DNA from: Manduca sexta
Lineage: Eukaryota > Arthropoda > Insecta > Lepidoptera > Sphingidae
Length of the DNA: 64,000 bases
Direction: 5' to 3'
Assembly: GCF_014839805.1 (NCBI RefSeq)
Contig: NC_051121.1
Location: forward strand, 4,199,116-4,263,115
The position numbers and the translations under genes are program-made. Positions 15,901-63,792 of the stretch are shown in pieces (position 1 is the first letter of the stretch; each line of letters begins with the position of its first letter). The notes beneath the pieces are model-generated. The model did not search any database. It was not told the DNA's origin and was given only the letters and a program-made list of their open reading frames with translations.

Positions 15901-18900
15901 TACTAGGCTATCGCCGCTTTTTGCTAGGCTATCGCCGCTTTTTTTTTGCAATTGCTTTAAGACTTTTTTGTTTCTTTTTATTTTGAAAGTCCTATTCATA
16001 GCATTATGACGTATGTTGACTAATATACGTTTTTATTTTTATTCTGCAATGATCTATTTACTCAAGTTTATTTATACTTTCTACAGTTTTTATTTTGGTA
16101 GTTGTGAAAGACTCGTAGCAGATACTTAAGTGTATAAATTCGAAATTTGTGAGATTTGTTTTCGAATCATTATTCATAGAATTGGTGATGATAAAGAAAA
16201 TAAGATGTTTTCTATGTTTGAATTTGTACATTGTTTTATAGGTAACAGAAAATAAAAGAAATTATTTTTTGAAAACAGCATCAAAATTTATGGAGAAATA
16301 AAACAGTTATTCATATTTGAGATATTTTTGTAGCGGCGTGGTAGGTTTATCGCGTTATCTCTTTTTCACGCACGCAGCGGTATGGCCAGTGATACTCGGT
16401 GACGTCACAGTTTGCTATTACTGTTATTTGACAATTACCCATTCTAATAAATTTAAAAACCACATAATTTGTTTTGCGCGGCTTTTGATAATTCGTTTTT
16501 CCGTGACATTTTGGATGACATACGTGTTTGATAATAGTATTAAAAAATAATTAAATCACCTATTATACTAGACATTTAAATACTTAATTATACACTATTA
16601 AAAACACACATAAATTTTCGTAAAAACATTCAAGGAATAAATATAGATTTGCTCCGGAAAACTACTGAATGATATTCTCGACGAATTAGAGATTTCCGCA
16701 ATCAAATTATTTCTCATATAAACGAAGTATTTTCACCTACATGCGTGAAGATATGATTCCTTACAATGTTTTTGTATTCCACATGGGTTGTTTGACCCCA
16801 ATAATACGTGATGTCATCACAACGCGACTCCCACGTAGAAAAATAATCACGCAAAATAAAATTTGTTGGATTTGTCTCTGTGCTTTGGTTTTGTTTTATT
16901 TTATTGATTGATTTACTTATTTATACTTCAGTAAAACCTCCTGTTGCTGGTTATTACAATACATCAAATTACAATTCAATTTATTTTATTTTAATTTTAT
17001 TTTAATTCTCATAAAAAATATATTTTCTAAAGTGGCTTTAAATAAAAAGTCAAAGGTACACCAAATTTCAAGAATATCGCTCAAACCGTTTTCAAATAAA
17101 ATGTTTATATAATTTATATTTTCATAAAATTATTTATTACATTCATTTATTGTAACAAACCCAACCTTTGTCCTCTTCAATTTATATAGAAAATGTGACA
17201 ATCATTTATATTTCGTCCCATTTAAATTAACCTAAATACACAATAACAAATCATAAAACCACTATAATTAATTTGAAAACATTTGTAACATAAAAAATTA
17301 TGTTAGATGAAAGAAAATAAAATTTTATTTGAATCGATGGCACATGTCCAAAAGCCAGATGTCGTAAATCGAAGGTCCGTCCATTGATAAATTAGTAATG
17401 TCAATGTTTGAACGGCCCGTATTCACAAATGTTACTTAGCTAAGTACGGATACGGAGCAATGCTATGATAACAAGTTTGTTTCTCAGTACTTACAGCATG
17501 ACAGCCTTCGCAGTGCGTAGGCGTAGAGGCGCTGTGATTGGCTAATATTGAGGTATAACTTTACGTCAGTCAGCTGTCACATTAACAGCTGAACAAAACA
17601 AAATAAAAATGGAAAGTAAGTACACTGTGCGTCCTCATAGTGTAGTTTGTGAATATGGGTGTTAGACTTGCAGTTTAATTTCACGCAAACACGAGCGGAA
17701 GACGCCGCTGACGATTATGCTATTCCAACATGAGCGAATTTTGCGTCATTGCACGCGTAGGTTTATTACTCCTGTTCGCACATTCGTTTATTTTTGTATA
17801 GTGACATGTAATCATTTGACGTTGTCTTTGGTTATTTACCAAAGACTATTGCGACATAATCATCCAAAAATGTAATGCCGTATGTTGCTATTTTCAATAT
17901 ATTCGAGTTTATAACATTTTACGAGTAAAATATAATCGGCTTTGAATTATCTATTTTAATCCTACTGTTACTGCAATTTTTGAAATAACTATTACTTTTA
18001 TATATCTTTTTATAAAGATATCCTCGAATACTTCACAATTATTTTTCCAATTTATTACCAATATTATTTCAGTGCGCTACCCTCGAATGATATAAAACAT
18101 ACCCTGATAATACATACTATACTATATTATCTTAAAAAATACCTAAAGCTAAATGAGAAGTATGAATTAATGGAGAAATGAACGTTACTATTTGTAAATC
18201 AGTATTATCGTTATGTAACCTTGGTCAAGCCACGTTACAAAATTAGATCAAGCAGGTTAATCAAATCTCGTGGGACTTCCTACTTTAGTAAGATATCCTT
18301 GTATACGTAACGCGCCGAGATTACGGGCTTCGTGGCAAAGCCAGTCTTAATTATACGGCTTATCCTTTTATTCACAGATAAGCATTTCGGGGAAACATCA
18401 GTTAGCATGATTTGATGGCACTTTCTACATCTTTGATGTTTTATAAAATGTGTTCTTCTGTTGTCCTTTCATTGTATGTATTAAAATAGAGTTTTGTTGT
18501 TAACGCATATTCAACACCACATATAAGTAAATACAAAGATACACAGAATTTTATCAAAATAAGCAATTTGATTTAGTTAATACTAAACGTCTTCTCGATG
18601 TCCTATTTAATGGCTATAAATATTTGGCATTGGTTGTGTCGGCGGTCTAACGACTGTCTCGAGATAAGGAAAGGGGAAAAGTATTTATAGTTTTCCTAGA
18701 CTAGAACTCAGTGCTACCTCTCCATGTGTTTAATACTATGGTAATTTTATCCATCAACACTGTATTTATATTAGTTTGTTAAATGTAACAACTTGTCTTC
18801 TATCTAAGAAATTAACACATGCTCATTGCGCAGGATTAGGAGCGGAAAACACAACACTGGGTCTTGAAGTTTTGTCATGGATGTGTTGCTGGGTTGCGTA

Positions 18901-32900: not shown

Positions 32901-35900
32901 ATTCGCTATTTTTATATGGATGTGTGGGAAATTTAAATGAACAGTGATTCAAGTTACGTAATTATCAATAATTCGGTACACAAAAAATTTGGGATTAGAA
33001 ATTTAAATGGCGAATAATAACTGAAATATTCTCCCAAAAATCAGAGAGGTCGAGCCTCAGTTTGCGGTCTCTGACATAAAAAAAAAACAAAATCGTTGGA
33101 GCTAGTACCGCTAGAAGCCCTTTAAATATACGAAAATTATCATGAGATTCCCTTGTAGTTCTATCTAATAGTATATCAATAAACATTTGACGCAGGGCGG
33201 CCGCGATCGTAGATTCAAAGAGATCAAGTCGCTCGTCCAACGCCTCGTCCAGTTGTTCAGACCGCAGCTCTCGCTCCAGCGGTTACGGGACCGACCAGAG
33301 GCCTCAAGACGAGCGCTTCTATGACAGGAGGTTAGTCTAGCGCTCGATAATATCTAGCATCTATCTAGATTCTTGTAAAGCAGGGGACAGGAGATAATGA
33401 ATCATATTCTAAAGTTACTAATATACATTTTCATATTGTCTAACTCAAAAGCATGTTAAAGGGATAATGTTTTTAATCAATGTTTGCATTAATTACATTT
33501 GTGCACACAATCCTTTCATGCTCTTCTATCGCTTTGTGCCTCTTTATTTATTTCTTAAGAATATAGATACCTAGCCAAAATTACCAAACATGGTATATTG
33601 ACATAAAATAGACAAGGGTCTGTGATAACATTTAAATCTTCAAAGAAAAGACAAATTAGATACAGATTTTCATCACCATTTAGAAAATTATCAATATTCA
33701 ATTCCTTATTGATGATTATCTCACCTCGAGTAGCTGTTGTGTGTAATTTAAACATAAAATTATACAATAAATTATATATAATATGTTTTCTCTGACATCT
33801 ATTTTTCGATTTCATTAAAATTGTAAAGATGTGTTAGTGTGTCATTTACATCATTATTAATTATTGTGATAAAAATAAAATGCATTAATTATTATATTTT
33901 GTTTTCAGCATGTCCGAGTGTCGTACCTTCAAACCGGAGTTCTGGGAGGAGGAACCAGACGACAGCAGCGCTTGCAGTGACAACTCCCTCACTGACTTCA
34001 CGTTGGACGACGAGGGCAAGTGGCAGTGCCCTCCCAAGCCTATCTGGAAGGCTACCGTCGAGGTAAGAATCATCACATTAGCTGCATTGATAAGTTTGAT
34101 ATTATTGATCATGGTAATAATTATTCTCAGCAAGCATATTCAACATGTTTAGAAAAGGAATAAATTGAGGAAAAGTAATCTGCTTACATTTCTGTGGTAT
34201 TTGTTGCAATAACAGTTGTTAATAGAGATATTGTTTGAAAATAAAGAACTAATATATAATGGTTTACACTGGATTTTTTTATTTGATATAATATACTTGA
34301 ATACTTTAAAGGCGATTGTTACTGATTCTTATATATTTTTTGACTGGTATGAATTTTATTATACTGGTAACTCTACAACGAACTTTTTATTTATCCAATA
34401 TTCCATCAATCTTTGATCCAGGGCTTTCTACCACCTAAAATTTCAAGGAACATAATTTTGAATACTTTTTCTCGTATACAGGCTATCCAGGAGTTCAACA
34501 TGGTGCGTCCCGGAGACAAGGTCCTGGTCTGCCTGTCCGGGGGCCGGGAGTCCATCGCACTCCTCCACACGATGCATCAGTATCAGTTCTACGCCAGATC
34601 TAAAGGGATCCATTTCAGTATTGGTGAGTATTTCTACCGTATTATTGTTTTGTCTGAGAAGCGGCGATAGCCTAGTTGGTTGTGGATCGGAATGCCGAGA
34701 CGAATGTCCGCAGGTTCAAATCCCAAGGGCACATACCTCTGACTTTTCTAAAAAATTATGTGTGTATTCGTTGTGAATTACCGATTGCTTTAACGTTGAA
34801 GGAAAACATCGTGAAGAAACCTGCATACCTGAGAAGTTCTCTATAGGAATTTTGAGGGTGTGTGAAGTCTACCAATCCGCACTAGGCCAGCGTGGTGGAT
34901 TAAGACCTAATCCCTCTCAGTAGTAGAGGAGGCCCGTGCCCAGCAGTGGGACAGTATATAATACAGGGCTGATATTATTGTTTTGTCTGATATTTAGTGC
35001 TGTGACACATAATTTACGTAGTTATTAGAGTTCCTGAATGCAAGATTCGAGACAGTACAGCTACTTTTAGACATTGCGTTGCTTAATGAAAACATATAAC
35101 ACATCTTTTTTCGTAAGATCGGCAACATCATACTTTCAGTGAGAAAAACACTCCCGCACACTACCTCTTTCGCACTAAACTATAAAATGATAATAATATT
35201 AGAAAACGAAAACAAATTTTTGGCGAAAATATTCGTAGACGATTTTTGGCACAATTTTAGCAGAGGTAAAGACGAATGTGTGGTTCCATTTAGCAACATA
35301 ATGGGAAAATCATCTTGTAGATAGGACTATCAATTTGTCTAGCCAAGCAGTAACACGTTACTGCGCACACACTCTCACTACATTTGAGGTATTTAATGGT
35401 TATTTTTTTAATCCAGGTGCTCTATACGTACACGAACCTTCCGCCCAAGTCGATCCCCTGCATTTGATGGCGTATTGCAAATCTCTTGGAGTCAAATTCA
35501 TATACCAAGATAAATTGGAAGAAGATGAGTGCCAAAGTAAGTATTTTTATTGTTTACAGCATGTATTGTAATAGCATTTTAAGGAGCTGTCCTGTAACTT
35601 GAATGTACTTAGCGTGTGTTTTAATAGCATTTTAAACAGCAGTTCTGTAGCCCGCAATAATAGTATTTATTTAGGTATAGGATAAAGGCCTTAACATATA
35701 GTGCATTAACATATAGTGGATTGACTACTTTGCATTTAACGTTTTGCATTGCTGTTGCATTTTATGCAGTGAAAGGATATTCGGGAGCAGTCGTAACTAT
35801 AATTATTGTAGGCACTAAAGTCTGTATTATTGGCATCATAGAACTATGATCAATGATAACCCTTATCAGGCGTATGTCCAGTTTCGAACATGCCGATGTA

Positions 35901-38717: not shown

Positions 38718-41700
38718 ACAACTGTCAAATCTCCCGCCAAAACGCGACACGTTTATTAAAGTTGCTATTTATTATAGATCGTGTTTATGAACGATTTGTG
38801 ATTACTCAGTGATTGTTTTACTTGTGATGAAGTATATGTAACACGTTGAAATGTTTATGTAATAGTTCGTAAGATGTAAGAGAGCATGCTTTATTTTGAG
38901 GTTAAGTTTGTCCAGGGTTGCCATGTTGAAGAAACTTTTGTTATAATAGTATGTTTTTTATTCTTACGAATAACTGTGGAATTGAATATAAAGTGCATTT
39001 GTTACAGTCTGCTAATATTAATGAAATATATTTTTCAATGTTGTTGAACGTTTTCAAGAGATGTATGTGAGACCGAGTCCTATTTATTCTGACGTAATGT
39101 ACGAAGAGATATATAAAATTATATAAGGTAGATGTTTACTGTAATAATTTCGTTCCGGTACCTGTAGTAATTATGCGTCCTAATAAGGGTACCTAACAAA
39201 AAATATATATTTTATGGATATTTGATTCATTATTATATTTACATTTGAATATACACTTTTACAAGAGAAAAGTTAGCTTGTACAGCTAAACATATATGAT
39301 TAGATGTAGACTTCGCTTTTTCTATAATCATTCGACATGGCTATTGGTTGTCTATCTCTCTGTACGAATATAGGACTTAAGTGTATGAGTATATAATGTT
39401 TAAAATACCGCCATTTCCTAAAAATATTATAATTTCATGAGCAATGTATACGTTTAATACTTAGTTTTAGAAAAAGAGTTTTTATTCTTATAAGCGTGAA
39501 CATGATGAGCCAGTGTCACTGGTCTTTTTTGATAATTTAAAATAGAAAAATGGCAAATAAATTGGATGATCTAATGAGAGTGGCGGTATTAATTTCGTAT
39601 TTACATCGAGTGTAATTCGCTGTATGAATTTGTAATAATAAGTTGGCAACATCAGCGACCAGCTTCCATTTTGGCGGGAAATCAAAATGGAATATGGCCG
39701 CCGATGTCAGACTGATTTAGTTGGTGTGATTTTTTCATCTCATTTTGTATTGTTTATCGTGCTGTATGTCTTTTGTATCGCCATATGTTTCTAAAATATA
39801 GATTTAAGAAATTCCTTTGTTTAAGAACAATATTTAAGATTATAACGATGAAAGTCCCATTATTGCTTCCATATTGTATTCATATACATTGGACTTATAA
39901 AATAAAGATATGTTTTAATGAAAATACTTACTTTTATTTTATAACCATTGGTATTTTGCGAGTTATTAAATAATACCAAAATATTATAATTATAGGAGTC
40001 AAAACAAAATTACATGCATTTTCTACACAAGGTACACTTGTCATTCTGAAGTTTGATTAGCGTGTGTCCATAATATACTTAGGGCTGTATTCATGTTTTT
40101 TTTAAACGAGTGGAAAGTCAATGTGCAATTTAATTTTTCTTTTCATACCGGCACAGCAATCTGAACCCCTCGCACCTGATGGTAAATGGAGTGGAGTCCA
40201 ATAGAATGTTGAGTGACGAGATGATTATTGATTCCTCGTCGACAGTCGACACAATTATGCCGCCTGTTTGATCCGGATATACACAGGCTGATGCCGGTAC
40301 GTGTCACGTGGTCCACTATTTTACTAACTCTTCTCCTTCTATACGACTTATGAGAGCTGATTACCCCTCGGCAGTCGACATAATTATGCCGGCCTGTTTG
40401 ATCCGCATATACACAGGCTGATGCCGGTACGTGTCACGTGGTCCACTATTTTACTAACTCTTCTACTTCTATACGACTTATGAGAGATGATTACCTCTCG
40501 GTAGTCGACACAATTATGCCGTCCTGTTTGATCCGGATATACACAGGCTGATGCCGGTACGTGCCACGTGGTCCACTATTTTACTAACTCTTCTCCTTCT
40601 ATACGACTTATGAGAGATGATTACCTCTCGGTAGTCGACACAATTATGCCGTCCTGTTTGATCCGGATATACACAGGCTGATGCCGGTACGTGTCACGTG
40701 GTCCACTATTTTACTAACTCTTCTCCTTCTATACGACTTATGAGAGATGATTACCTCTCGGTAGTCGACACAATTATGCCGTCCTGTTTGATCCGGATAT
40801 ACACAGGCTGATGCCGGTACGTGTCACGTGGTCCACTATTTTACTAACTCTTCTACTTCTATACGACTTATGAGAGATGATTACCTCTCGGTAGTCAACA
40901 TAATTATGCCGGCCTGTTTGATCCGGATATACACAGGCTGATGCCGGTACGTGCCACGTGGTCCACTATTTTATTAACTCTTCTCCTTCTATACGACTTA
41001 TGAGAGATGATTACCTCTCGGTAGTCAACATAATTATACCGGCCTGTTAGATCCGGATATACACAGGCTGATGCCGGTACGTGTCACGTGGTCCACTATT
41101 TTACTAACTCTTGTCCTTCTATACGACTTATGAGAGATGATTACCTCTCGGTAGTCGACACAATTATGCCGCCCTGTTTGATCCGGATGTACACAGGCTG
41201 ATCCTGGTACGCGACATACTTACGTGGGCCACTATTTTACAAACTCTTTTTTATGCTCTCTTTACACAAGGTCTTTGAAAATCAAACCCTTAAGGGGATT
41301 AAATCAATCGGACACGGTTAGTATATTACAATTACAGTGACACAATCCACACTGCGAATGCCAAAAACTTCCAAATAAGTTGGTGAATTAAATAATTTTC
41401 GCTGACTAATAACATTGGACGCAATTTCTGTGTATTTGCCCTTGAATTTTCCATCCTTAATGCCTTGGCCTAATTATGCCTTACGTCGGGGGCTACCGTA
41501 GTCGATAAGACTGGGGTATGAGGGTGTAGAGAATTTGTTAGAGCTGCAAACTAGTCGGCCCAAACTATTTAAGGTTGAATTGGAAAATTTTCAATAAAGC
41601 TACATTTTATTTGATTAAAAATGCTGTTTTGTACACTATACAACACATGGGACAACTCGACCGTAAGCGTCTATAATCTTTGTTAGGGTTGATATATTTT

Positions 41701-42675: not shown

Positions 42676-44134
42676 TTATTTTTTATCGCCACCCTGGCAG
42701 CATGGCTTGCCGCCTGTAACAAATGTTAAATTCTTTAGCATATCACATCATAATATCATGTAAACACACATCATAAAATAATTGAACAGCTTTAATTCAG
42801 CACTTTCTAATTGTAAAGAATCTTTAGTTCGATTATCTGACTACCAATTAAACAGTGAAGATAAAATGTCTAGTTCGAAGTCTCAATAAATTAGAATGAA
42901 CTGATTGTAGAGATAGTATGGATGTAGAATATAAGTCGGTACCCACCAGACGGCTTGCCATCTCCGCAGGCGCAGTTGGGGCCGCAAGTGCAGTTTGCAC
43001 CACAGGCGGCCGTGCCCCCACCGCACGTGTCTGTAAAACAAAGACATAAGGTTCATTTTACTGTTTTCAAAACCCAAAGCACCCCTGATGATTATTAATT
43101 GCACTTTTCCTGCGAAAAATTCAATTGTGAACTCGGCGCGGTAGGCACAAGATACTGATGAGTGCAACCCTTTATTAATCCTTCTTACAGCAAAGTCACT
43201 TCGAAATGATAATTTAAACCCAAGAATAACTAATGAAGACTAATGAGGAATGTTGTATCAATGGTCAGTGTAATTCTGTCGGCCCAATTTATTTTAGGAC
43301 CCAATATTAGGACGTCGCGACGTTGGATCCTTACGATGACGCTTACAAAAATCACAGTTAAGCCACAGAATTATTCACAATACACTAAGATCAAAAACAA
43401 CAGTATAGCTTATCATTAAGTGTCCTATTTGCATCACTGCTTTAATTAATTATTCAGGAAATAGCCCAAGTAAGTCTCAAGGGTTTGTGAAGAGTCTTTG
43501 CTTTGACTCTAAACATCGATTTGCCTCATTAAATGTTTACGATACCCTAAAGGATCCCTTTATTGTTTTAAATAAATTAATTGGAGTCAGCCGACGAGCC
43601 GCATTCCTTTGTTTGAATTTTAATTCGGAATGCGTTTTGGTCGGACATGGACAAAGTATTCTTCGATAGTTTATTTTTAGTCATTATCGATTAAAATGGG
43701 TTCAATATTGGCTTTATAAATAATTGCAAAAGAGGAGGTAAAACAAGTCAAATTAGGTAAATATATCACTAAAATAATGATAATTTTACCAAAAAATATA
43801 TAAACATTACTAATTATAATTCATTAATTTGTTATCATCGGTAAAAATGCATCGGTAAAAGACCAATTAATTGTTAAATTAATATCATTCTGAATCCATT
43901 TCTTGTGATTTAATTTCTACGCACTTATTTTTAAAGTTCAAATATCAAAACAATTATTAAAATGAATTACGAATTAAAATAATTAATCTTAGATAACAAA
44001 CTGAATTAACCAACAACAATAAAAGCGTGTTAAAAACTGAAAACCAATTTGAAAGAGCCAAACACATGGTGAAAATAAAATAAATTTAGGAATAATAAAA
44101 TGTTACCTTTGCACGAGTCGCACGGTGCAGGCAT
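42676..44134 (-). CDS. Metallothionein, 49 aa, 10 Cys
   Basis: Three exons on the minus strand: 44107-44134, 42947-43030 and 42676-42713 (TAA), both introns in phase 1. The protein opens MPAPCDSCKDTC, continues CGANCTCGPNCACGDGKP, and ends GGKPCCQGGDKK. Its ten cysteines sit at 5, 8, 12, 19, 23, 25, 29, 31, 42 and 43 in C-x2-C, C-x3-C-x-C and CC arrangements, with no aromatic residue and no His. That is the pattern of an arthropod metallothionein, a cytosolic thiol-cluster protein that binds Zn, Cu and Cd. The start has a good context (CCACC before ATG). Compared with the two metallothioneins at 56-61 kb it is richer in Gly, its last exon is longer, and it ends in Lys-Lys instead of CC. It lies about 10 kb from the cluster. 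A palindrome holding two metal-response-element-like cores lies just upstream (44165-44176). Confidence 0.85.
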
Positions 44135-44164: not shown

Positions 44165-44176
44165 GTGCGCGCGCAC
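44165..44176. promoter_or_regulatory. Palindromic pair of metal-response-element-like cores upstream of a metallothionein
   Basis: GTGCGCGCGCAC is a perfect palindrome and reads TGCGCGC on both strands, which fits the MRE core TGCRCNC bound by MTF-1. It lies 31-42 bp upstream of the minus-strand metallothionein ATG in a GC-rich patch (about 44110-44200). A TCAGT-type initiator is readable on the minus strand near 44211, which would put the palindrome in the 5' UTR. A TATATA lies farther up near 44428. The transcription start is not known from sequence alone. Confidence 0.4.
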
Positions 44177-53960: not shown

Positions 53961-54621
53961 TCATTCTATCTTGACAGTCTTCTCATTCTTCTTCTTCATC
54001 ATTCTTCGTAAGATAGAGTAACCAACCCAAAACACAAGGTACAATTTAGAATCAGTGCTTACAATAAGATATGTTGCTAGTATCGCTATAATTATTCCAA
54101 TGGCATTGAACATTATCTGGAGTGGTGTTTTGGTACTTTTTACTCTGCAGGAACAATCTGCAGGACAGGTATTATTCGCGAAGGTCACTTTTTTCGGTTT
54201 CATTTCTATTTCCAAAGTCTTTTCATGTTTAGTTACGAATTCTGGAAAAAAGGAAGTTTCATGAGATTTCATTAAAAAGTTTAAGATTTTATCGTCATGT
54301 CGTTTATTGCTTTTAATTTTAAAACAGGCGCGATATCAAAAATGCAGGTAATGTTTTTGCTTTGATTAAGAAACAGGCGTTCCCAATTTATTGAGATGGT
54401 TTTCAAACGAAATTATTACAATTAATTAAAGTCAATAGATAATCGGGGAGGATGCTTATAACCCAGCTCTATTTCTGATAGTAGTAAATAAGCAAACATA
54501 AAGAAAAACATTAACATTTAAATATCAATCAAATCTAAATTAGCATTTAGTAGAATAATTATGAAACGCAAAAAGTTTTTAGAATCTCATTACCTTCCAC
54601 AGTTTGTGTAATTGTCGCCAT
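53961..54621 (-). CDS. Small membrane protein with a C-x3-C-x-C motif; metallothionein-like gene structure
   Basis: Two exons on the minus strand: 54594-54621 (ATG, 28 nt, donor GTAATG) and 53961-54241 (acceptor TTCCAG, stop TGA). The spliced product has 102 residues. It opens MATITQTVEEFV, then a charged stretch. TCPADCSC follows (Cys 35, 39, 41), then a strongly hydrophobic helix at about 51-71 (IMFNAIGIIIAILATYLIV), a second shorter hydrophobic patch (KLYLVFWVGYSIL) and a Lys-rich tail (RRMMKKKNEK). I do not recognise a family. The first coding exon has the same length (28 nt) and phase (1) as those of the three metallothioneins, and the C-x3-C-x-C spacing equals their core motif. An alternative start inside the intron (54272) would give 103 residues with a different N-terminus, but it would read through a good splice acceptor. 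AATAAA on the minus strand is at 53892-53897. Confidence 0.6.
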
Positions 54622-55279
54622 AACTGCAGTTCCCGGTGTGCCGGATGGGAATGACTTGATACAAAATATTATCACTTAAATATTATCCGCAATGCGTATT
54701 CGAAGGCCGTGTGACAAAAATGTAGGAAATGTTTCGAGCCGACGAGCCTTTTCTTTGGTATCATCAAATGAATCCGTGCAGAACGATTGAATCTTCCGGA
54801 ACAAATAAAAAGTTATTTGCTTCGGCTGCGAGTAAAAAATGCTAAACATTGAAATGCACTTCGAAAGATTTGAAACTCTAAATGATCGTCATTCTTTTGC
54901 CTTGGTCCCAATTTATTTGGCCAATAAACATTCCCCTTCCATTCTTCCTGCAATCATTTTGCCTGTTGCTTTATTTTTTGGCTTCGTCCCTCCCTTAATT
55001 CATCCTTATTTAAGATAAGTTATAATTAACAATAATATGATTATTTTAAATGTATAAATTTTATTTATATCTACATCAGACTACATTTTGAGAAGCATAA
55101 ATTCTACTACCTAACACGATCTTTTGTTAGACCTATAAAGTTTTGTAACATTATTTTGGTAATTGCATGAAACGTATCTATCGAAATGCCACGTTGAAAT
55201 ACTACTTAGTAAAGTGCAAGCACTGTTGGAATGAAGTTTAGTCTAATTATAGTCTGTAAAATCATCTTATATTAGTGAT

Positions 55280-55595
55280 ATTATAAATAAGAAAGTTTGT
55301 GAAAATGTTTCGAAGTTTGGTTGTTTATTAGAAGTAAATGAATAAACGGATAAGATGTCTAAATTTTATGAAACTTAGCACACTGGTAAATCATATTCTG
55401 GATTAACATAGAGGCTACTTTTATCCCGGTTATTTTCTCCCACAGGTTTTTTTTCATCTATATTTTTAAATACATGGCATTGTCGTCGTGCTTGTAGCAC
55501 TTCGAAAAGCCTCAGTGTTATAGATATTTTTGTAGCGGGAAAGATTCTTCAAGCGGGTGAAGCCGTGATCAACTCCTAAATACTGGGTCATTTGT
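55280..55595 (+). repeat. Retroelement-tail-like repeat (third copy)
   Basis: It shares GAAGTTTGGTTGTTTATTAG, AACTTAGCACACTGGTAAAT and GCGGGTGAAGCCGTGATC with the copies at 2478 and 49195. Diverged and without an ORF. Confidence 0.55.
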
Positions 55596-56055
55596 TTACG
55601 GGCAGTGGCACTCTATAGGGAGGCAATTTTGTGTATCTCGTCTTTTATTCATATAATAAAGTCTACTTATGGCTAGGGTAAACTTGTTCTTTTATTAAGT
55701 TTTACGCCTATGATATAAGCCGTAAGCCATTAGTCATATAAATTAGGATATAGGTATGTATTTCATTAAATTTACTATATCTATAAGGTATAATATTTAA
55801 GTTCTAAATAAATGAATACAAGGAAACTTCGAAACCTAACATTCTAAAACATTTTTAAAATTATGAAAGTTATCAATATTGTTACATTTTTTTCCGTAAA
55901 CGTCCACAATACTTTTACTTTGGTTATTGTGTATTTTCATATTTACTTTTGTAGTTTTCATATCAACCATTATATTGGTCAAACTACGTGTTATAATAGA
56001 TAAGTTTTTTAACAGCCTTGCTCCAGATCTGATGGTTTTTGCGAATATTTTGCGG

Positions 56056-56095
56056 TATAAAACATTGTTGGCTGCTGGAAAGTGCATAGTTCAGT
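56056..56095 (+). promoter_or_regulatory. TATA box and initiator of the 38-aa metallothionein
   Basis: TATAAAA at 56056-56062 is followed about 35 bp later by TCAGT at 56091-56095, the arthropod initiator form. The ATG is about 30 bp further on at 56124. I saw no clear TGCRCNC core in the 300 bp upstream, so metal induction is not evident from this promoter. Confidence 0.6.
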
Positions 56096-56123
56096 AATAA
56101 ACAACTGAGAAACAACAACCAAG

Positions 56124-58448
56124 ATGCCTTCCCCCTGTGAACCCTGCAAAGGTAAGTACATAAATTCCTTTGAATTGTATGTCTAAATTAATACTTCTAA
56201 GATACTGTGATAGTATAAATTTAGCTAGAAATATAGTACTTTGTTGTGTTGTAAATATTTGAAAATTTTTAACCGTAAAACCATATAGAGATTTTTAATT
56301 CGAATTACAATATAAAAAGGTTTAAAATCACCTTTTGCTATTTGATACAACAAAAGTAAACTACAGACATATTTACATAGTCCTACCATAATTAAAGAGT
56401 AGGTATCTATTATACCTAGTCTTGCCATAAATATTGTAATAAAGAAAAAAGAAAATTGTTAACTGCAAATAACATTTATTACTTTTACAGTGTGTCAGTT
56501 TAATACATAAATATAAAACAATTAAAAATATAAAAAGCTTATTCGAAGTGGTCTCCATTGGCTGCAATACAGTCCTTTAAACGATGAGGCCAGTTATCAA
56601 TAGAAGCACGCACTCTTTCCATGGGAAAATTCTTCACTGCCAATCGTATAGATTGTTTTAGGGACTCCAAATTATCATGGCGTTTAGAGCAAGCTGTACT
56701 CTCTAAAACTGACCACAAATCATAATCCAGCGGATTAAGATCGGGACTAGACGACGGCCAGTCTTCAGCTCTGATGAAGTCCGAAACGTTCGATTCCAAC
56801 CAAGACTGCGTGGACCGAGCTTTATGACCCGGCGCCGAGTCTTGCTGGAAGGACCATACTTGGTTATTGAACATGGTGATGTTAAGGGGCTTAACTACCT
56901 TCTCAAGAATGGTATCTTGATACACTTGTGCCGATGTTTTGATACCTTTTTCACAAAAATATGGCTCAGTCACTCCTTCATAGCTAACACCCCACCAAAC
57001 CATCACTGAAGTCGGATAATGTCCACGTTGCACTCTGTCGACTAATTGGGAAGCTTCCTTAGAGCTTTGAGCATAAATACGGTCATTTTGTTTGTTAAAA
57101 TGTTGCTCAATTGTAAAAATTTTCTCATCCGTAAACAAAATTTTTCTGTGACCTCCCTTTGCGTACCGCTTCAGTAGTTGTTTCGATTTTACCACCCTAT
57201 TCTTCTTTAAATTATCAGTTAAGAAATGGCCAGTGCGTCTCTTATAGGCTGCAAGTCCTAAGTCATCTTTTAAAATACGCGACATGGTTCTAGGTGCTAT
57301 CTTCATTTCCCGAGATAAAATCTTTTGCTTTCGGACAGGATTTCTTCGAATTCTTTCCCTTACTGCTTTGACCACCTTTTTCGTACGAACACTACGTGGA
57401 CGGCCAGATCTTTTTCTGTCACAAACAGAGGAGGTCTCATTGTACCTATTAATAGCCCGGTACACAAACATTTTACTAATACCAAGTGTATGGAGAGTTT
57501 TAAAAATTGCATTTGGCTCCATACCTACTTTGTGTAATGCTATCACAGCGATTCGGTTCTCTTTATCACCCCACACCATTTTAATATCGCAAAATATTTT
57601 ACAATGTATTGGCGCCAAAATGAGAAAACACAATGAACAATCGTATAAAAATGACAGATTCGAAATTCAAATGTAATATTTTTTTATAATTAAGTGTAAC
57701 AGTATTTATGGCCAGACTAAGTATATGCTGATTTTTACATTGTATTACTAAATGCAACCAAATAAGTTTATGTTTTTGAAAATAACACTTTACAATAAGT
57801 TACACGAACTCTACATATGAAATAAAAAAGTGTATGTTTTGAACAAAATAAATACTGTATATAAAATGAAAAGTTTTCTCACTTTATTAGGCGTGTGAAG
57901 AATAGATTTTAGGAAATAAAATTTTAATAATCATTTCGTATTGTTCATCCCTCACAAGTTTAGGTTGTGAATTATGACAGTAGTCTAAAATGTGAGTTAT
58001 TTTCTCCTCAGATTCCTGCAAGGACGGCGCCTGCACCACCAACTGCGCTTGCAAGGACAAAGGCTGCAACGACTGCTCATCTAAAGGTATAATTAATAGT
58101 CTTCTAAACGTCCTTTATTACGACGAAACTATCGGGTTTCGTTCTTTTCCTCTTTCCTTCGATATTTCGAAGGCATTTATGTATACCAAAAATCAAGAAA
58201 ACGTGTTGGTTGTAAGAACTCACCTCTATTACAAGGGTAGTCCTTAACCAAATACACTGTTGTCAGTTATTATTATTAGAAAAACTCTCAAATTTTAATT
58301 TGATTTTTTTAATAATTGGAATTAAACGTATTCAGCATTGTAAAACTTCAACATAATAAATACATTGCAACACAACGCACCCACGAAAAGACTGTCTTTC
58401 TAAGATTATATTTCAGCTTAATTTAATTTTCCAGGCGGCTGTTGCTAA
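56124..58448 (+). CDS. Metallothionein, 38 aa, 10 Cys; intron 1 carries a mariner
   Basis: Exons 56124-56151, 58012-58086 and 58435-58448 (TAA), both introns phase 1. The protein starts MPSPCEPCKDSCKDGACTTN, continues CACKDKGCNDCSSK and ends GGCC. Its ten cysteines (5, 8, 12, 17, 21, 23, 28, 31, 37, 38) show C-x2-C, C-x3-C-x-C and terminal CC patterns, with no aromatics: a typical small arthropod metallothionein that binds metal ions in the cytosol. TATAAAA (56056) and a TCAGT initiator (56091) precede the ATG, whose context is AAG before ATG. Intron 1 is long because a complete DD37D transposon sits in it on the opposite strand (56413-57723). Two nucleotides after the stop a second, GC-rich ORF begins (58451), described separately. 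The gene forms a head-to-head pair with the membrane-protein gene ending at 54621. Confidence 0.88.
56413..57723 (-). mobile_element. DD37D mariner/Tc1-type (maT-like) transposon, copy 2, apparently intact
   Basis: The element is 1311 bp between TA duplications (56411-56412 and 57724-57725), with the same inverted ends as copy 1. It lies inside intron 1 of the 38-aa metallothionein gene, antisense to it. The transposase ORF is unbroken, so the copy could still be active or is very young. Its insertion lengthens the metallothionein intron from about 0.55 to 1.86 kb. Confidence 0.94.
56539..57579 (-). CDS. DD37D transposase, 346 aa, intact
   Basis: The likely start is the ATG at 57579 (MVWGDKENRIAV), because the upstream 18 codons of open frame lack a conventional ATG; stop at 56539. 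N-terminal helix-turn-helix DNA-binding domains span about residues 1-110 and include an AT-hook-like RSGRPRS. The DDE/D domain has D in FTDEKIFTIEQ, D in FQQDSAPGHKA and D in SPDLNPLDYDLW. Thirty-seven residues separate the second and third Asp, the spacing that defines the maT (DD37D) branch of the Tc1/mariner superfamily. The enzyme cuts and pastes the element at TA sites. All catalytic residues and both ends are present, so activity is possible. Confidence 0.93.
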   Translation of the reverse strand: MVWGDKENRIAVIALHKVGMEPNAIFKTLHTLGISKMFVYRAINRYNETSSVCDRKRSGRPRSVRTKKVVKAVRERIRRNPVRKQKILSREMKIAPRTMSRILKDDLGLAAYKRRTGHFLTDNLKKNRVVKSKQLLKRYAKGGHRKILFTDEKIFTIEQHFNKQNDRIYAQSSKEASQLVDRVQRGHYPTSVMVWWGVSYEGVTEPYFCEKGIKTSAQVYQDTILEKVVKPLNITMFNNQVWSFQQDSAPGHKARSTQSWLESNVSDFIRAEDWPSSSPDLNPLDYDLWSVLESTACSKRHDNLESLKQSIRLAVKNFPMERVRASIDNWPHRLKDCIAANGDHFE

Positions 58449-58450
58449 CA

Positions 58451-58579
58451 ATGGACCGAGCTAGGAGCAGGCGCCCTTCCCGTTTCACCCGGATCAGTAA
58501 TGTGCTAGAGACCTGCTTCCCTGTTGCCTTTACTGTCGTCTTCCTCATCACCATTATATTGTTCTATTGCTTTATCTAA
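58451..58579 (+). CDS. Possible 42-codon membrane microprotein ORF right after the metallothionein stop
   Basis: The ATG lies 2 nt after the metallothionein TAA (TAACAATGG), in the -1 frame, with A at -3 and G at +4. The product starts MDRARSRRPSRFTRISNVLE, a basic head, and continues TCFPVAFTVVFLITIILFYC, a hydrophobic segment of membrane-helix length, then FI and stop. The stretch is far more GC-rich than the surrounding intergenic DNA and many codons end in C, which suggests selection on coding. The frame stays open up to the exon-3 acceptor, so it could be translated by reinitiation after the short metallothionein ORF, or from another transcript spliced into the same exon in phase 2. I recognise no family. 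Chance cannot be excluded, and the last metallothionein of the cluster (60645) has no such ORF. Confidence 0.4.
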   Translation: MDRARSRRPSRFTRISNVLETCFPVAFTVVFLITIILFYCFI

Positions 58580-58892
58580 ATTATATGGTTTATTGAAGTA
58601 AACAATTTATTTTATTTTATTCATTTCTTGTTCAGTATTTGATTAGGTTTTATTTAAAACGATTCGAGACGTTTGGTTGTCTATTTGTTTTGTAAATATT
58701 GTAAAATATTTACACTAAATACGCATTATTAACTTGTACGTTGGTATCATAAATTATTCTCTTCAGAAAAGTAGCACTTGATGCTATAAATAACTCGGTA
58801 ACATTAATAAAATAATATACAGACATTCGTAATATATTTAAGTTGATCACATCTATACTATTATATAAAGCTAAAGAGTTTGTTTGAACGCG

Positions 58893-59138
58893 CTAATCTC
58901 AGGAAGTATCGGTCCAAACTGAAAAATTCTTTTTGCGTTGGATAGCCCTTTGTTCGTGGAGCGCTATAGGCTATATATCATCACGCTATGACCAATAAGA
59001 GCGGAGCAGTAATGGCTAATCTCAGGAACTACCGGTTTGAACTGAAAAAATCTTTTTGTGTTGGATAGCCCTTTGTTCCTGGAGTGCTATAGGCTATATA
59101 TCATCACGCTATGACTAATAGGAGCGAAGCAATAATGA
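58893..59138 (+). repeat. 123-bp tandem duplication in a repeat
   Basis: CTAATCTCAGGAAGTATCGG at 58893 and CTAATCTCAGGAACTACCGG at 59016 start two copies that both continue TTGGATAGCCCTTTGTTC and GCTATAGGCTATATATCATC. It is part of a degraded retroelement; the following piece ends GGGCGGAGCCGCGGGC (about 59449). Confidence 0.85.
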
Positions 59139-60169
59139 AACATGTTGCAAAAACGGGGAAAAATTATTAGTTTTGAGAGCTTCCGTTGTGTGCGCTGCGT
59201 AAACGGTTAAAGTTATGCAACAATGATGTATGACGGGATTGTTCCTCTTAAAAAGTTCTTAAAAATATATTATAAAACAAAGTCCCCCGCTGCATCTGTC
59301 TGCCTGAACGTGTTAAACTCAAAAACTACCCAACGTATTAAGATGAAATTTTGTATGAAGACACTTTGAGACCCTGGGAAGAACATAGGCTCCCGGGAAA
59401 CTACTACTTTTATAACGGAAAACTTTAGCCTGAAAAACTTAATAACGCGGGCGGAGCCGCGGGCAAAAGCTAGTTGTATTATAATATGCATGTCGCCTTT
59501 AGGTTTAGTGGCAGAGTATAATATGGGCTCTAGGAGACGTCCTGGCTTTCATTCCCAAGTCGGTCAAACATTTTATGTGGATTTTTTTGCCCAAACCTAA
59601 CCCTAGAATGTGCGATACTCATTTTGACGTGTGTGTTTTAACTAAATCGAATGACATTACAGCTGACTATTTCTTTATGCTCAATCAAAGGATATGATAT
59701 AACAAAATCAATACTAGCGTTTTCTTCTTCATATCTACACTCTTGATAGGATGATATTAGTTTTCTATGATTGAAAAAAGCATTGCAAGGTGCACCGCCA
59801 CCCACATTGAAGGGACACAATATGACGTTGAAAATTATTATCTGTATAATCTTTTTTAATCAGTCACATGGTAAATACCTATTTTAAACTTAATTTGTAT
59901 AGCATTGAGGTTTATAATAGAGCTAACATGACTTTACACTTTAAAATAAAAACAATATATGTTCTCATTAGCATAGTTCTGGATAGATGGGGTGGAATAC
60001 ACATGGCGAATGGCCTTCGAGAATTAAGGTGTAAATATGTGTGTGTGAGTTCTACGGGAAACTCTAGTACTTCATTTTAGGACTGATTGTATGTACTATG
60101 AATATCTAGTTTTCATTAGATTCGGTAATAATATAATGTCTAAAGACAATGAGATATGCGTATATGTAT

Positions 60170-60497
60170 AAAAAGCGGCGATAGCCGAGTTGGTTGTGGA
60201 ACGGACTGCCGAGACGAATGTCCGCAGGTTCCAATCCCAAAGGCACTAACCTCTGACTTTTCTAGAAAAAATATGCGTGTATTCTTTGTGAATTATCGTT
60301 GCTTTAACGGTTAAGGAAAACATTGTGAGGAAACCTGCATAACTGAGAAGTTCTCTATAAGAATTTCGAGGGTGTGTGAAGTCTACCAATCCGCACTAGG
60401 CCATCGTGGTGGACTAAGGCCTAAACCCTCTCAGTAGTGGGGAGGCCCGTGGCCAACAATGAGACAGTATATAATACAGGACTGATATTATTATACC
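60170..60497 (+). mobile_element. tRNA-derived SINE, family 1
   Basis: The head TAGCCGAGTTGG and GGTTCCAATCC are the A and B boxes. The body and the tail (ACAGGACTGATATTATTATA) match the copy at 34659. Intergenic, between two metallothionein 3' ends. Confidence 0.85.
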
Positions 60498-60644
60498 CTG
60501 CGTATGCGTATCCCTTATATATAAAGTAGAAAATAAAGGAGTTATATATTAACAATATTATTTATTACATGATCAAAATATAATTCAAATCATTAACATA
60601 GTAAATTGTTAAATATTCAAAGCCCATGAAGTCACGCAGCAAGG

Positions 60645-61435
60645 TTAACAGCAACCGCCTGAAATAGACATTTGTTGAAATAAGGATAATGTAATATAAC
60701 CAACTGGATGGACGTGAAATAAAATATTGGATCCTTTAAGTTTGACATATGTGAACAACATAATACATGTCAATTTCATTTTCATATTTAAGAAAAATTT
60801 AGTTATTTTGAAAAACAGTCTTATCAAGAAGATTATTAAGACGCAAACGTTTAAGGTGGTTATATTATAAGCCAATTATATATCCCTTTCCTTTTTAGAG
60901 ATTATGTATTAGAATAAGAATTTTATTAAAATGTATGTATGTACCTTTGCTTGTGTTAGGATATATTTTATATTCGCTCTGAAAGCGACCACCATTAGGT
61001 GTTAAAACCTGCCACGTAAGTGTGTCGCGTTCCGGGATCAACCTTTCTATAACCGATTCCAATAGACCAGCATAATTGTGTCGACTGTCGAGGGGTAATC
61101 ATCTCTCGTCAGTCGACATTCTATTGGACCCCACTTCAGTTACCATCAGTTGCAGTAAGGTCACTTTGTTGTGCTCGTATAAAATCTACTTGAAAATAAA
61201 AACATAAATAAGTACCTTTTGTAGAGGAGCAGTCGGAGCAGTTGGGTTCACAGCTGCAATTGTCCTGGCAGTTCGCATCACCATCCTTGCAAGAATCTAA
61301 GGCAACAGACAACCAGTAAACATTAAAACCAAAAATAATCGAAAACATACTATATTAATAACACATACATTACAATTTGAAATGAATAATAAAGAATAGA
61401 TTTTTACCTTTGCAGGGTTCACAAGGGGCAGGCAT
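60645..61435 (-). CDS. Metallothionein, 40 aa, 10 Cys
   Basis: Minus strand, exons 61408-61435, 61216-61296 and 60645-60658 (TAA), both introns phase 1. The protein starts MPAPCEPCKDSCKDGDANC, continues QDNCSCEPNCSDCSSTK and ends GGCC. Ten cysteines at 5, 8, 12, 19, 23, 25, 29, 32, 39 and 40 match the 38-aa neighbour almost one for one; the main change is two extra residues before the third pair. It is clearly a paralogue of that neighbour and lies tail to tail with it. A TATATAAAA box reads on the minus strand at 61519-61527, about 85 bp before the ATG, and AATAAA reads near 60563. Intron 2 contains a copy of the dispersed repeat found in the 40-41 kb satellite (about 60998-61175). The conserved DSCKDG start of exon 2 and the GGCC end suggest recent duplication. 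Confidence 0.88.
60998..61175 (-). repeat. Satellite-related dispersed repeat in intron 2 of the 40-aa metallothionein
   Basis: On the minus strand it reads CAAAGTGACC, then CAATAGAATGTCGACTGACG and the GATTACCCCTCGACAGTCGA core, then the GCGACACACTTACGTGGC end: a full-length, unamplified version of the element that became the 130-bp satellite. Confidence 0.75.
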
Positions 61436-61518
61436 TTTGATGTTTGTTGTTTATTTTAGTTGAACTACTGAAAACAGGAGATGGTGATTGAATGATAACT
61501 TGAATGCAGTGGGTGCCA

Positions 61519-61527
61519 TTTTATATA
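61519..61527 (-). promoter_or_regulatory. TATA box of the 40-aa metallothionein
   Basis: TATATAAAA reads on the minus strand, 84-92 bp upstream of the ATG at 61435. No perfect TGCRCNC metal-response core was found between it and 61700; TGCGCGT near 61563 misses the consensus at the last base. Confidence 0.55.
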
Positions 61528-62431
61528 CTAAAGCATTTTAGTAAAAACAGTCAAGTGCAAGGCTGCGCGTTGGAAAGACCCCGATTTCTTTATCAATGCT
61601 TTTTTCAAACACTACTTGTGATAAGGTCGTGTTTGAAGAGATATTTCGAGTTATATACAATATATACTAAGAATCAGACTTCGGCGTTTGTTGTGTGTTC
61701 AACATAAAAACGCACAAAAAATACAATATATTACAATTAAGTGTTACACTTTAATAGACGTTCCACCTATTATAAAATTATTAAAAAGACATCGCCTTGC
61801 TTATGAAAGTTTTTATATTAAAAACATGTGCGTGTTTTGTTGGTTTTTTAATTGTATTTTTCATATATTGTCTATCTCGAGAGGCAATGAAACAAACTTA
61901 TATTTATACTGCTACAAGAAGGCACCAGCGCAAATTATACAACTAACATCATTAATTTCCCATAAATTTATCACAATATAACAAGAAGATTAAAATCTCT
62001 CGACAGGTTCCCCGTCAGTACCTATATTTTTATAATATTCTGTAAAATCACTTACCGCCATTTTCAATAGTGATCTTTATCGCTTTTTTCGGTCTATCTC
62101 AAATATGTACCAATCAGAACATTTTTTTGTCATGCTTACAAACGAGATATTTTGATTGGTTCATTCTCGGAATCAGATTGAAGATTGAGATTGGGATCAT
62201 TTATTGAAAATGGCTGTTGGTCGAAGTTTCTGTTCTCTGTTTTTTAACATGATCTAATTGGAACCGATTATCCGCTTGTCACGAGTCATTTAACTTTTGT
62301 TAGCGTTCCGCATCAATGTCAAATGTTTAAAAAGGTCGCTTTTTATTTATTTTTGTCATTGCAATGCAATTTATTGGTGCATTACGAAGCATTGTTATGA
62401 TAAATTTGTCACGGATAACACGTCTTTCTGT

Positions 62432-62437
62432 TATAAA
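62432..62437 (+). promoter_or_regulatory. TATA box for the possible 4-Cys peptide gene
   Basis: TATAAA in a GTTATAAATAC context, 75 bp before the proposed ATG at 62507. In a very AT-rich genome this is weak on its own. It counts because spacing, ATG and splice donor follow in order. Confidence 0.35.
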
Positions 62438-62506
62438 TACTACCGTAGGAATTTCAAGTAAATGCTTCTAATTTTTGAGTAACAACTCTTTCACTTATTT
62501 GTTACA

Positions 62507-63792
62507 ATGAAAGTTATCGATGGACGCTCGTGTAAGTTTCTCATTCGTTTTCAATTTCTTTAAAGTGTATCTGTGTGTGCTGTCATCTTTTCAATTCTGA
62601 TATCATTTGCCTTTATAAATTTACTGCCTCTTGATCACCGTTTTGCCAGCGTGACAGAGTTTTTCCGGGATAAAGTCCCGCTCTAAATATTTCCAAGATG
62701 AAATATCTTATGTCACAAACTATCTTCATACCAAATTTCATCGAAACCCGTTCGTTAGTTTTTGATTTATCAGACAGATGGACAGGCAAACGCGGCAGGG
62801 GAATTGTTTCATAAGGCCTAGTGACAGCTGCATCATAATAATTAAATTCAAAAAAACGTTCCAAATAATGATCGCGTCGTTGTTCATAATTATTACACCA
62901 AAGAATACTCTAGAACTACGTTTTATAAAATTAAACTTTATACCTACATCTAGTCATAAATTCAGTAAACACTTCAACCCGTTACATTGTTCTATAAATC
63001 TATATTTGCACACATATTGTTTGAGTCAGGAATCCGGTAAATATACAGTAGAGGGTAAATCTATTTTTATCATCAGATCTGAAGCCTGACACGCCTTGGA
63101 GCAAGGAGTGCGTGCCGGGCTGCGATTGCCACGATATCTACATAGATAGTGAGTATTGAATCATAAAATAATAGCGTAATTCATAAGTTGCTATTTTTGC
63201 CCATGTCGAAGTTTGGATCCAACAGGGCCTTATCCGTCTTTTTCCAATTACAACTCTTCTAATGGCAGGTTGGTTTTAATAGCCTTTAGGTAAAAAAGGC
63301 AAAAATCCCTTATTTATGCCTATCTAAAAGCAGTCCTTCGATTACGCCCGTAATTACAAAAAAATATTCGTCTAAGTAAACCCTGAGTGACCAAACAGCT
63401 TATATCATGTGTTGGTGTTATTCACAATGTATCTAACTATATTTAATTTGATCTTATGAAATAAAATTTAGGCCTTTACGGTATTAACCAATAAAATCAT
63501 GAGCATTAAAATCGTAATGTAAATGTATTTTTTGATTGCTTTGAGTGGCGAGACGAGCTTACCGTTCGCCTGATGGTAAGCGATACGACCGCCCATAAAC
63601 ATTAGAAACATCATCCTACAACTCGAATTACAAAGCATTGTTTGGTATTCCACTGCGTTCGCCATTCTGAGACATGAGATGTTGTCTTATTATGTCCAGT
63701 AGTTACACTGGATATAGCCGGCTGGTCTAAAACAATATAAGAATTTAAAGTCCTTGCCAATTTCTTTTTCAGATTCCTGTATCAAGTTATAA
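62507..63792 (+). CDS. Possible 38-aa, 4-Cys peptide gene with metallothionein-like exon plan
   Basis: Three exons fit in frame: 62507-62531 (ATG, donor GTAAGT), 63077-63148 (pyrimidine-rich acceptor, donor GTGAGT) and 63773-63792 (acceptor TTTTTCAG, TAA). Both introns are phase 1, as in the metallothioneins. The product starts MKVIDGRSYLKPDTPWSKEC, continues VPGCDCHDIYID and ends NSCIKL. Cysteines at 20, 24 and 26 repeat the C-x3-C-x-C core; a fourth is at 35. TATAAA at 62432 is 75 bp before the ATG. Unlike a metallothionein it contains Trp, Tyr and His, so it may be a diverged member, a different metal peptide or a decaying copy. Exon 3 starts ATTCCTG, like exon 2 of the 38-aa metallothionein, which could be a trace of ancestry. 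It is head to head with the 40-aa metallothionein. No transcript evidence is available. Confidence 0.4.
62635..62790 (+). repeat. SINE/LINE-tail-like repeat in intron 1 of the 4-Cys gene
   Basis: GAGTTTTTCCGGGATAAAGTCC and CCAAATTTCATCGAAACCCG match the tail family at 12928, ending with CAGACAGATGGACAGGC, a very common lepidopteran repeat ending. Confidence 0.6.
63535..63720 (-). repeat. Dispersed repeat with LFMGG-like frame, second copy
   Basis: The minus strand reads GGCGAACGCAGTGGAATACC and the translation MFMGGRIAYHQANGKLV, as at 20560-20830. It lies in the last intron of the 4-Cys gene. The 65-codon frame is not a gene. Confidence 0.7.

What the first reader, a model, noticed from the sequence alone, without database searches (positions are those of the whole stretch)
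53961..63792. Cluster of four small C-x3-C-x-C genes in two head-to-head pairs
Within 10 kb lie, in order: membrane protein (minus), 38-aa metallothionein (plus), 40-aa metallothionein (minus), 4-Cys peptide (plus). All carry the spacing C-x3-C-x-C, all introns read are phase 1, and three first coding exons are exactly 28 nt. Seen in sequence: motifs, frames, splice sites. Inference: local duplication of a metallothionein gene gave rise to non-classical members that kept the exon plan while losing most cysteines. I know of no description of such a mixed cluster.
Basis: partly seen in the sequence, partly recalled or inferred. Interest (0 to 1): 0.75.

Follow-up and report, generated by a model that had tools for sequence, protein, structure and literature searches.

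The report
Hawkmoth metallothionein cluster with membrane gene
A stretch of tobacco-hornworm DNA holds a cluster of small metal-binding protein genes with an old, uncharacterised moth-and-butterfly membrane-protein gene in its midst; the cluster is real and larger than first seen, but it is unproven that the odd neighbours descend from the metal-binding genes.

Summary
The four gene models are in the sequence as described, with 28, 28, 28 and (G4) 25-nt first exons and seven of seven introns in phase 1. The cluster is larger: a third metallothionein (49 aa) lies at 44134-42676 and a fourth (46 aa) 3-6 kb past the window end. An exon-1 pattern of the MT1-MT3 type occurs three times in the 470-Mb genome, all here.

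The membrane-protein gene (G1) is real and old: 24 homologues, 16 from named Lepidoptera. Its conserved part is a hydrophobic helix pair; the C-x3-C-x-C unit varies from 0 to 3 copies. Descent from metallothionein is suggested by exon plan, position and some coinciding cysteines, but metallothionein-profile scores do not beat spacing-preserving shuffles for six of seven sequences. G4 has strong splice sites and a TATA box, but relatives could not be searched for and its motif alone is within chance.

Verdict: a metallothionein cluster hosting one uncharacterised, lepidopteran-wide membrane gene; the duplication-and-decay story is partly supported for G1 and open for G4. In passing: a nearly uniform mariner-like family, one copy inside MT1 intron 1.

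The parts
53961..54241 (-). G1 exon 2: C-x3-C-x-C (CPADCSC), hydrophobic helix 50-71, second helix, basic tail, stop
   Evidence: splice model; homologues; alignment
54594..54621 (-). G1 exon 1, 28 nt, phase-1 donor
   Evidence: intron site consistent with five homologous frames P0008-P0011 and P0016
56124..56151 (+). MT1 exon 1, 28 nt; TATA box at -68
58012..58086 (+). MT1 exon 2, 75 nt
58435..58448 (+). MT1 exon 3, 14 nt with stop
60645..60658 (-). MT2 exon 3, 14 nt with stop
61216..61296 (-). MT2 exon 2, 81 nt
61408..61435 (-). MT2 exon 1, 28 nt; TATA box at about -92
62507..62531 (+). G4 exon 1, 25 nt; TATA box at -75
63077..63148 (+). G4 exon 2, 72 nt (CVPGCDC)
63773..63792 (+). G4 exon 3, 20 nt with stop
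42676..42713 (-).
42947..43030 (-). MT3 exon 2, 84 nt
44107..44134 (-). MT3 exon 1, 28 nt
44166..44175 (.). Palindrome TGCGCGCGCA upstream of MT3, matching the recalled metal-response core TGCRCNC on both strands
56408..57726 (-). Mariner-like element in MT1 intron 1 (transposase frame on the minus strand)

Best explanation
The locus is the metallothionein cluster of Manduca sexta (or a very near relative): at least four classical metallothionein genes in about 28 kb, from 42.7 kb in the window to 6.4 kb past its end. They arose by old local duplication and act as cytosolic metal-thiolate buffers (function inferred from the family). Within the cluster lies G1, for which one locus was found in the genome and homologues across ditrysian Lepidoptera. 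G1 encodes a small membrane protein: an N-terminal segment with, across the family, 0-3 C-x3-C-x-C units, then a strongly hydrophobic helix and a second, weaker helix ending in a basic tail. Most likely the N-terminal thiols face the cytosol and bind metal, or carry lipid, beside the membrane, as an accessory to a job done by the helix pair (inferred). G4 is most likely an expressed but strongly diverged peptide gene on the metallothionein exon plan; that it is no gene at all remains possible.
For: Cluster: four MTs with 20-26% Cys. The MT1-MT3 exon-1 pattern is found 3 times in 470 Mb, all here, 0 in the reversed control. MT2 and MT4 protein searches of the genome found only their own loci. 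MT4 scores 24.7 bits to Pfam Metallothio_5, cut-off 25. G1: 24 homologues, 16 from named Lepidoptera; mean majority-residue frequency 0.75 in residues 50-90 against 0.52 in 1-49; one locus, the other three matches having E 0.07 or worse with stops. Frames P0008-P0011 and P0016 lose similarity just before the E/D at the window's intron site, consistent with a conserved phase-1 intron. Helices 48-71 and 76-97 predicted at low confidence, pLDDT 63. G4: four strong splice sites, TATA at -75, exons 25/72/20 nt against 28/75/14 for MT1.
Against: No expression data. G4's relatives could not be searched for. The one protein search with a metallothionein (MT2) found no homologue, and MT1-MT3 match no Pfam or NCBIfam model, so their class rests on composition and on resemblance to MT4. 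G1's cysteine unit is missing in 5 of 25 rows. No TGCRCNC site lies within 1 kb upstream of MT1, MT2, G1 or G4. Own-genome protein searches are insensitive: the MT2 query did not find MT1.
Confidence: 0.7

Rival explanations
1. One reading: G1 and G4 are metallothionein duplicates that kept the exon plan and lost most cysteines, G1 having gained a membrane segment.
For: 28-nt phase-1 exon 1 in G1, 25/72/20-nt plan in G4 (MT4 also has a 25-nt exon 1), position inside the cluster. Two C-x3-C-x-C units in Papilionidae and Chilo and three in P0022. Cys 5, 17, 21, 23 of Parnassius and Iphiclides fall on MT1 cysteines. Full shuffles: window G1 N-terminus against MT3 0 of 1000, MT4 4 of 1000, MT1 7 of 1000 as good; MT profile against family N-termini 0-44 of 1000 as good.
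Against: With cysteine blocks kept, 168-671 of 1000 shuffles score as well for five family N-termini and 728 of 1000 for G4; only the window's G1 stands out, 9 of 1000. Profile comparison of MTs with P0017 22%. No DNA trace. Conserved core is the membrane part.
Confidence: 0.3
2. G1 is an unrelated membrane gene; its cysteines before the helix are lipid-attachment (palmitoylation) sites, and its place beside metallothioneins and its 28-nt exon are coincidence.
For: Cysteine unit variable, 0 to 3 copies; core in the helix pair; motif count outside MT exons near chance.
Against: Repeated, evenly spaced C-x3-C-x-C units in 5 of 25 rows are more than a lipid site needs; exon plan and position would all be chance.
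Confidence: 0.4
3. G4 is not a gene: a chance frame joined by chance splice sites.
For: Motif within chance expectation; no Pfam family; MT profile no better than shuffles (153 of 1000 full, 728 of 1000 block-keeping).
Against: Four strong splice sites in register, TATA box; 0 of 167 random motifs gave as good a model, criteria set afterwards.
Confidence: 0.45

Closest known systems
Insect metallothioneins (Drosophila MtnA-E; Pfam Metallothio_5, PF02067)
   Same: MT1-MT4 are 38-49 aa with 20-26% Cys and no F, W, Y or H; MT4 matches Metallothio_5 at 24.7 bits, cut-off 25. Several loci per genome, as in Drosophila with five Mt loci (passages of PMC5673992).
   Different: MT1-MT3 match no Pfam or NCBIfam model; they have three exons with a 14-38-nt last exon.
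Uncharacterised lepidopteran proteins O3G_MSEX011573 (Manduca sexta), LOC142980735 (Anticarsia gemmatalis), LOC124635974 (Helicoverpa zea)
   Same: G1 is their relative, 96, 47 and 44% identical.
   Different: 4 of 102 residues differ from the Manduca record; names given by the sources state no function.
Plant cadmium-resistance (PCR) proteins (recalled; not searched for)
   Same: Works-like comparison only: small proteins joining a Cys motif to membrane helices.
   Different: Different motif and a PLAC8 domain (recalled); PLAC8 is not among the 13 families that any of the 25 aligned G1 rows matched at E up to 1.

Membership tests
Metallothionein (MT1-MT4) | Short, Cys-rich, free of aromatic residues | tested here: met
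   Cys 10/38, 10/40, 10/49, 11/46; no F, W, Y or H in the translations
Metallothionein (MT1-MT4) | Match to a curated metallothionein profile | tested here: inconclusive
   MT4: Metallothio_5 E 2.5e-5, 24.7 bits, cut-off 25. MT1-MT3: none in Pfam; none of the four in NCBIfam
Metallothionein (MT1-MT4) | Metal binding and metal-induced expression | not testable with these tools
   Indirect only: recalled core TGCRCNC within 1 kb upstream of MT3 (one palindrome) and MT4 (two sites, about 0.5 expected), none for MT1 and MT2
Metallothionein (G1) | Cys-rich, aromatic-free, soluble | tested here: not met
   3 Cys in 102 aa, F/W/Y present, hydrophobic helix
Metallothionein (G4) | Cys-rich, aromatic-free | tested here: not met
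   4 Cys in 38 aa; W, Y and H present
Metallothionein descent (G1, G4) | Similarity to the MT profile beyond cysteine spacing | tested here: inconclusive
   6 of 7 sequences within block-keeping shuffles (168-728 of 1000 as good); window G1 the exception, 9 of 1000
Lepidopteran G1 family | Helix-pair core with its invariant residues | tested here: met
   25-row alignment, 9 invariant columns, all between residues 62 and 88 of G1

The most novel reading that the evidence does not exclude
G1 founds a class of membrane-anchored metallothionein: a metallothionein coding unit (28-nt phase-1 first exon, one to three C-x3-C-x-C metal units) fused to a membrane helix pair, kept in ditrysian Lepidoptera to load or buffer metal at a membrane, with linkage to the soluble metallothioneins as its birthmark.
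Probability: 0.2. Interest if true: 0.7.

Novelty: new member of a known kind. Interest (0 to 1): 0.38.

Why it matters
If G1 is a tethered metallothionein-like protein, it would be a natural link between soluble metal buffers and a membrane. Even if not, it points to a widely conserved lepidopteran membrane gene whose source names state no function, and it raises the count of metallothionein genes at this locus of the model hornworm to at least four.

Tried and rejected
G5, a frame at 52947 (-) with CPKQCDC: only a phase-0 acceptor fits and I saw no first exon; left as chance, though shuffles give it some likeness to G4 (8 of 1000 as good) and G1 (12 of 1000). Leucine-rich-repeat cap for G4's cysteine spacing: considered from memory; no Pfam match. 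Inverted block duplication G1-MT1 / MT2-G4: no DNA homology between the genes except MT exon 1 with its edges; G1 profile against G4 8.8%. Viral contigs for G1: 6 pattern matches, no relative. Solved structures for MT3: one hit, E 0.44. MT2 protein search: no candidate. Fold search not run because the G1 model is poor. Literature, listings only: searches listed no paper whose title or shown abstract is about a lepidopteran metallothionein gene cluster or a membrane-anchored insect metallothionein. Searches listed only 20 of 187, 15 of 49 and 12 of 27 papers, and only open-licence papers are held, so this is weak evidence of absence. Passages were seen of PMC8022704 and PMC5673992; a term search of PMC9073680 showed none.
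Full report
What was checked. The four gene models were rebuilt from the sequence with splice boundaries. G1 (-): 28-nt exon 1 at 54621-54594 and exon 2 at 54241-53961, 102 aa. MT1 (+): 28/75/14 nt, 38 aa. MT2 (-): 28/81/14 nt, 40 aa. G4 (+): 25/72/20 nt, 38 aa. All seven introns interrupt a codon after its first base.

What was missed. A six-frame scan for the motif showed a third metallothionein on the minus strand at 44134-42676 (exons 28/84/38 nt, 49 aa). The next stretch of the chromosome (contig C7, 12.8 Mb) holds a fourth on the minus strand, exons at window-equivalent 70352-70328 (25 nt) and 67255-67140 (116 nt), 46 aa. The cluster spans about 28 kb with at least four metallothioneins. 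All ten introns of the six gene models are phase 1. The MT1-MT3 exon-1 pattern occurs three times in the 470-Mb assembly, all here, and not in the reversed control (exact matches only). Genome searches with MT2 and MT4 proteins found only their own loci, but they are insensitive, since MT2 did not find MT1. The MT3 search did not complete.

Whose genome. G000 has 470,002,661 bases in 4,056 contigs. The M. [quoted passage not shown] G1 is 96% identical to the M. sexta record O3G_MSEX011573, 4 of 102 residues differing. I infer M. sexta; that the record comes from the older assembly is a guess from memory.

Chance. Nine motif occurrences against a mean of 2.6 (s.d. 1.6) in 30 Markov randomisations. 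Four of the nine are in metallothionein exons. The five others (G1, G4, 35367, 52947, 60936) are hardly above expectation. The motif by itself does not make G1 or G4 interesting.

G1. Two protein searches gave 24 homologues: 16 from named Lepidoptera and 8 from unnamed assemblies. By my knowledge of the names they cover Sphingidae, Noctuidae, Erebidae, Lasiocampidae, Papilionidae, Pieridae, Nymphalidae, Tortricidae, Crambidae and Pyralidae. The 25-row alignment has nine invariant columns, all between residues 62 and 88. Mean majority-residue frequency is 0.75 over 41 columns of residues 50-90 and 0.52 over 42 columns of residues 1-49. In the 60 residues before the helix, C-x3-C-x-C occurs once in 15 rows, twice in 4, three times in 1 and not at all in 5. 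Frames P0008-P0011 and P0016 lose similarity just before the E/D at the window's intron site; I read them as unspliced genomic frames, which fits a conserved phase-1 intron. A model from the 24 homologues gives helices 48-71 and 76-97 at low confidence (pLDDT 63, pTM 0.32). Hydropathy over 17 residues peaks at 2.4 in the first and is about 0.75 in the second, so the second may lie on the membrane surface. Basic residues flank both ends, which favours but does not prove a cytosolic N-terminus. No Pfam family reached its cut-off for G1 (BRI3, 13.7 bits against 25.9).

Is G1 metallothionein-derived? For: same exon plan; location inside the cluster; in Parnassius (two species) and Iphiclides, Cys 5, 17, 21 and 23 fall on MT1 cysteines without a gap. 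That gives hypergeometric p 0.0017 each, uncorrected, in 3 of 28 comparisons of 7 chosen members with 4 MTs; the three are close relatives; the other 25 gave p 0.04 to 1. With the block kept intact, 3 of 304 placements do so for MT1 and 13 of 1216 over four MTs. Against full shuffles, the window's G1 N-terminus resembles MT3 (0 of 1000 as good), MT4 (4) and MT1 (7), less so MT2 (64), but such shuffles break the motif that is the reason for the comparison. Against: a profile of the four MTs scores six of seven chosen sequences (five family N-termini and G4) no better than shuffles that keep the blocks (168, 208, 578, 447, 671 and 728 of 1000 as good). Only the window's own G1 stands out (9 of 1000). 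With full shuffles the seven gave 2, 11, 40, 23, 44, 0 (G1) and 153 (G4) of 1000. Profile comparison of MTs with Parnassius gave 22%. I hold descent at about 0.3.

G4. Its four splice sites, a TATA box at -75 (MT1 -68, MT2 about -92; none in MT3 or G1 within 150 nt) and an AATAAA 383 nt after the stop are good. None of 167 motifs in 60 random sequences allowed such a model, while one of nine in the window did, G4 itself; the criteria were chosen after the fact and the true MT motifs fail them. One locus was found in the genome. It has no Pfam family and could not be searched in the protein collection, being under the minimum length. It is a candidate, no more.

Regulation. The recalled metal-response core TGCRCNC occurs 0.5 times per kb in 83 kb. 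In the 1 kb upstream of each ATG, MT3 has one palindromic site, MT4 two sites, and MT1, MT2, G1 and G4 none; with so few sites this proves nothing. Head-to-head gaps of 1.5 and 1.1 kb do not argue for a shared core promoter.

Mechanism. Shown: gene structures, conservation of G1, cluster size. Inferred from family knowledge: MT1-MT4 chelate Cu, Zn or Cd in the cytosol. Inferred: G1's thiols sit beside a membrane and bind metal or lipid. Because 5 of 25 rows lack the unit, the core job must be carried by the membrane part, with the cysteine unit an accessory.

Novelty. The metallothioneins are new members of a known kind. G1's relatives are already in the databases as hypothetical or uncharacterised proteins. 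The unusual reading, a membrane-anchored metallothionein, is not excluded and is put at 0.2.

Noticed in passing
window 56408-57726 (MT1 intron 1) and 6951-8268: A 1319-bp mariner-like element with an open 346-codon transposase frame (three catalytic-type D, 32 residues between the last two) and imperfect terminal repeats flanked by TA. The two window copies are 99.85% identical; in the genome 40 of 40 scored places show as 100% identical, out of 1349 first-look candidates not all scored. This points to a very recent burst. The main texts of PMC8022704 and PMC9073680 do not contain 'mariner' or 'Tc1'.
   Followed up: partly
L009:4140-4255 and 7328-7352 (-), 3-6 kb past the window end: A fourth metallothionein, near Pfam Metallothio_5, with a 25-nt first exon like G4's.
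   Followed up: yes
window 60165-60495, 34651-34982, 15572-15902, 36720-37040; L009:5951-6276: A dispersed repeat of about 330 bp, 78-90% identical between copies, that looks like a tRNA-derived SINE (by eye).
   Followed up: no
window 40141-41227; single copies near 0.5, 37.8 and 61.0 kb: A tandem array with about 130-bp spacing, with related single copies elsewhere, one between MT2 exons 2 and 3.
   Followed up: no
window 58892-59137: Two tandem copies of a 123-bp unit downstream of MT1.
   Followed up: no
window G1 (54621-53961) against P0002: G1 differs at 4 of 102 residues from the named M. sexta record, which seems high within one species; divergent strains or haplotypes may be involved.
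   Followed up: no
window 52947 (-): A short frame with CPKQCDC just downstream of G1, without an identifiable first exon.
   Followed up: partly
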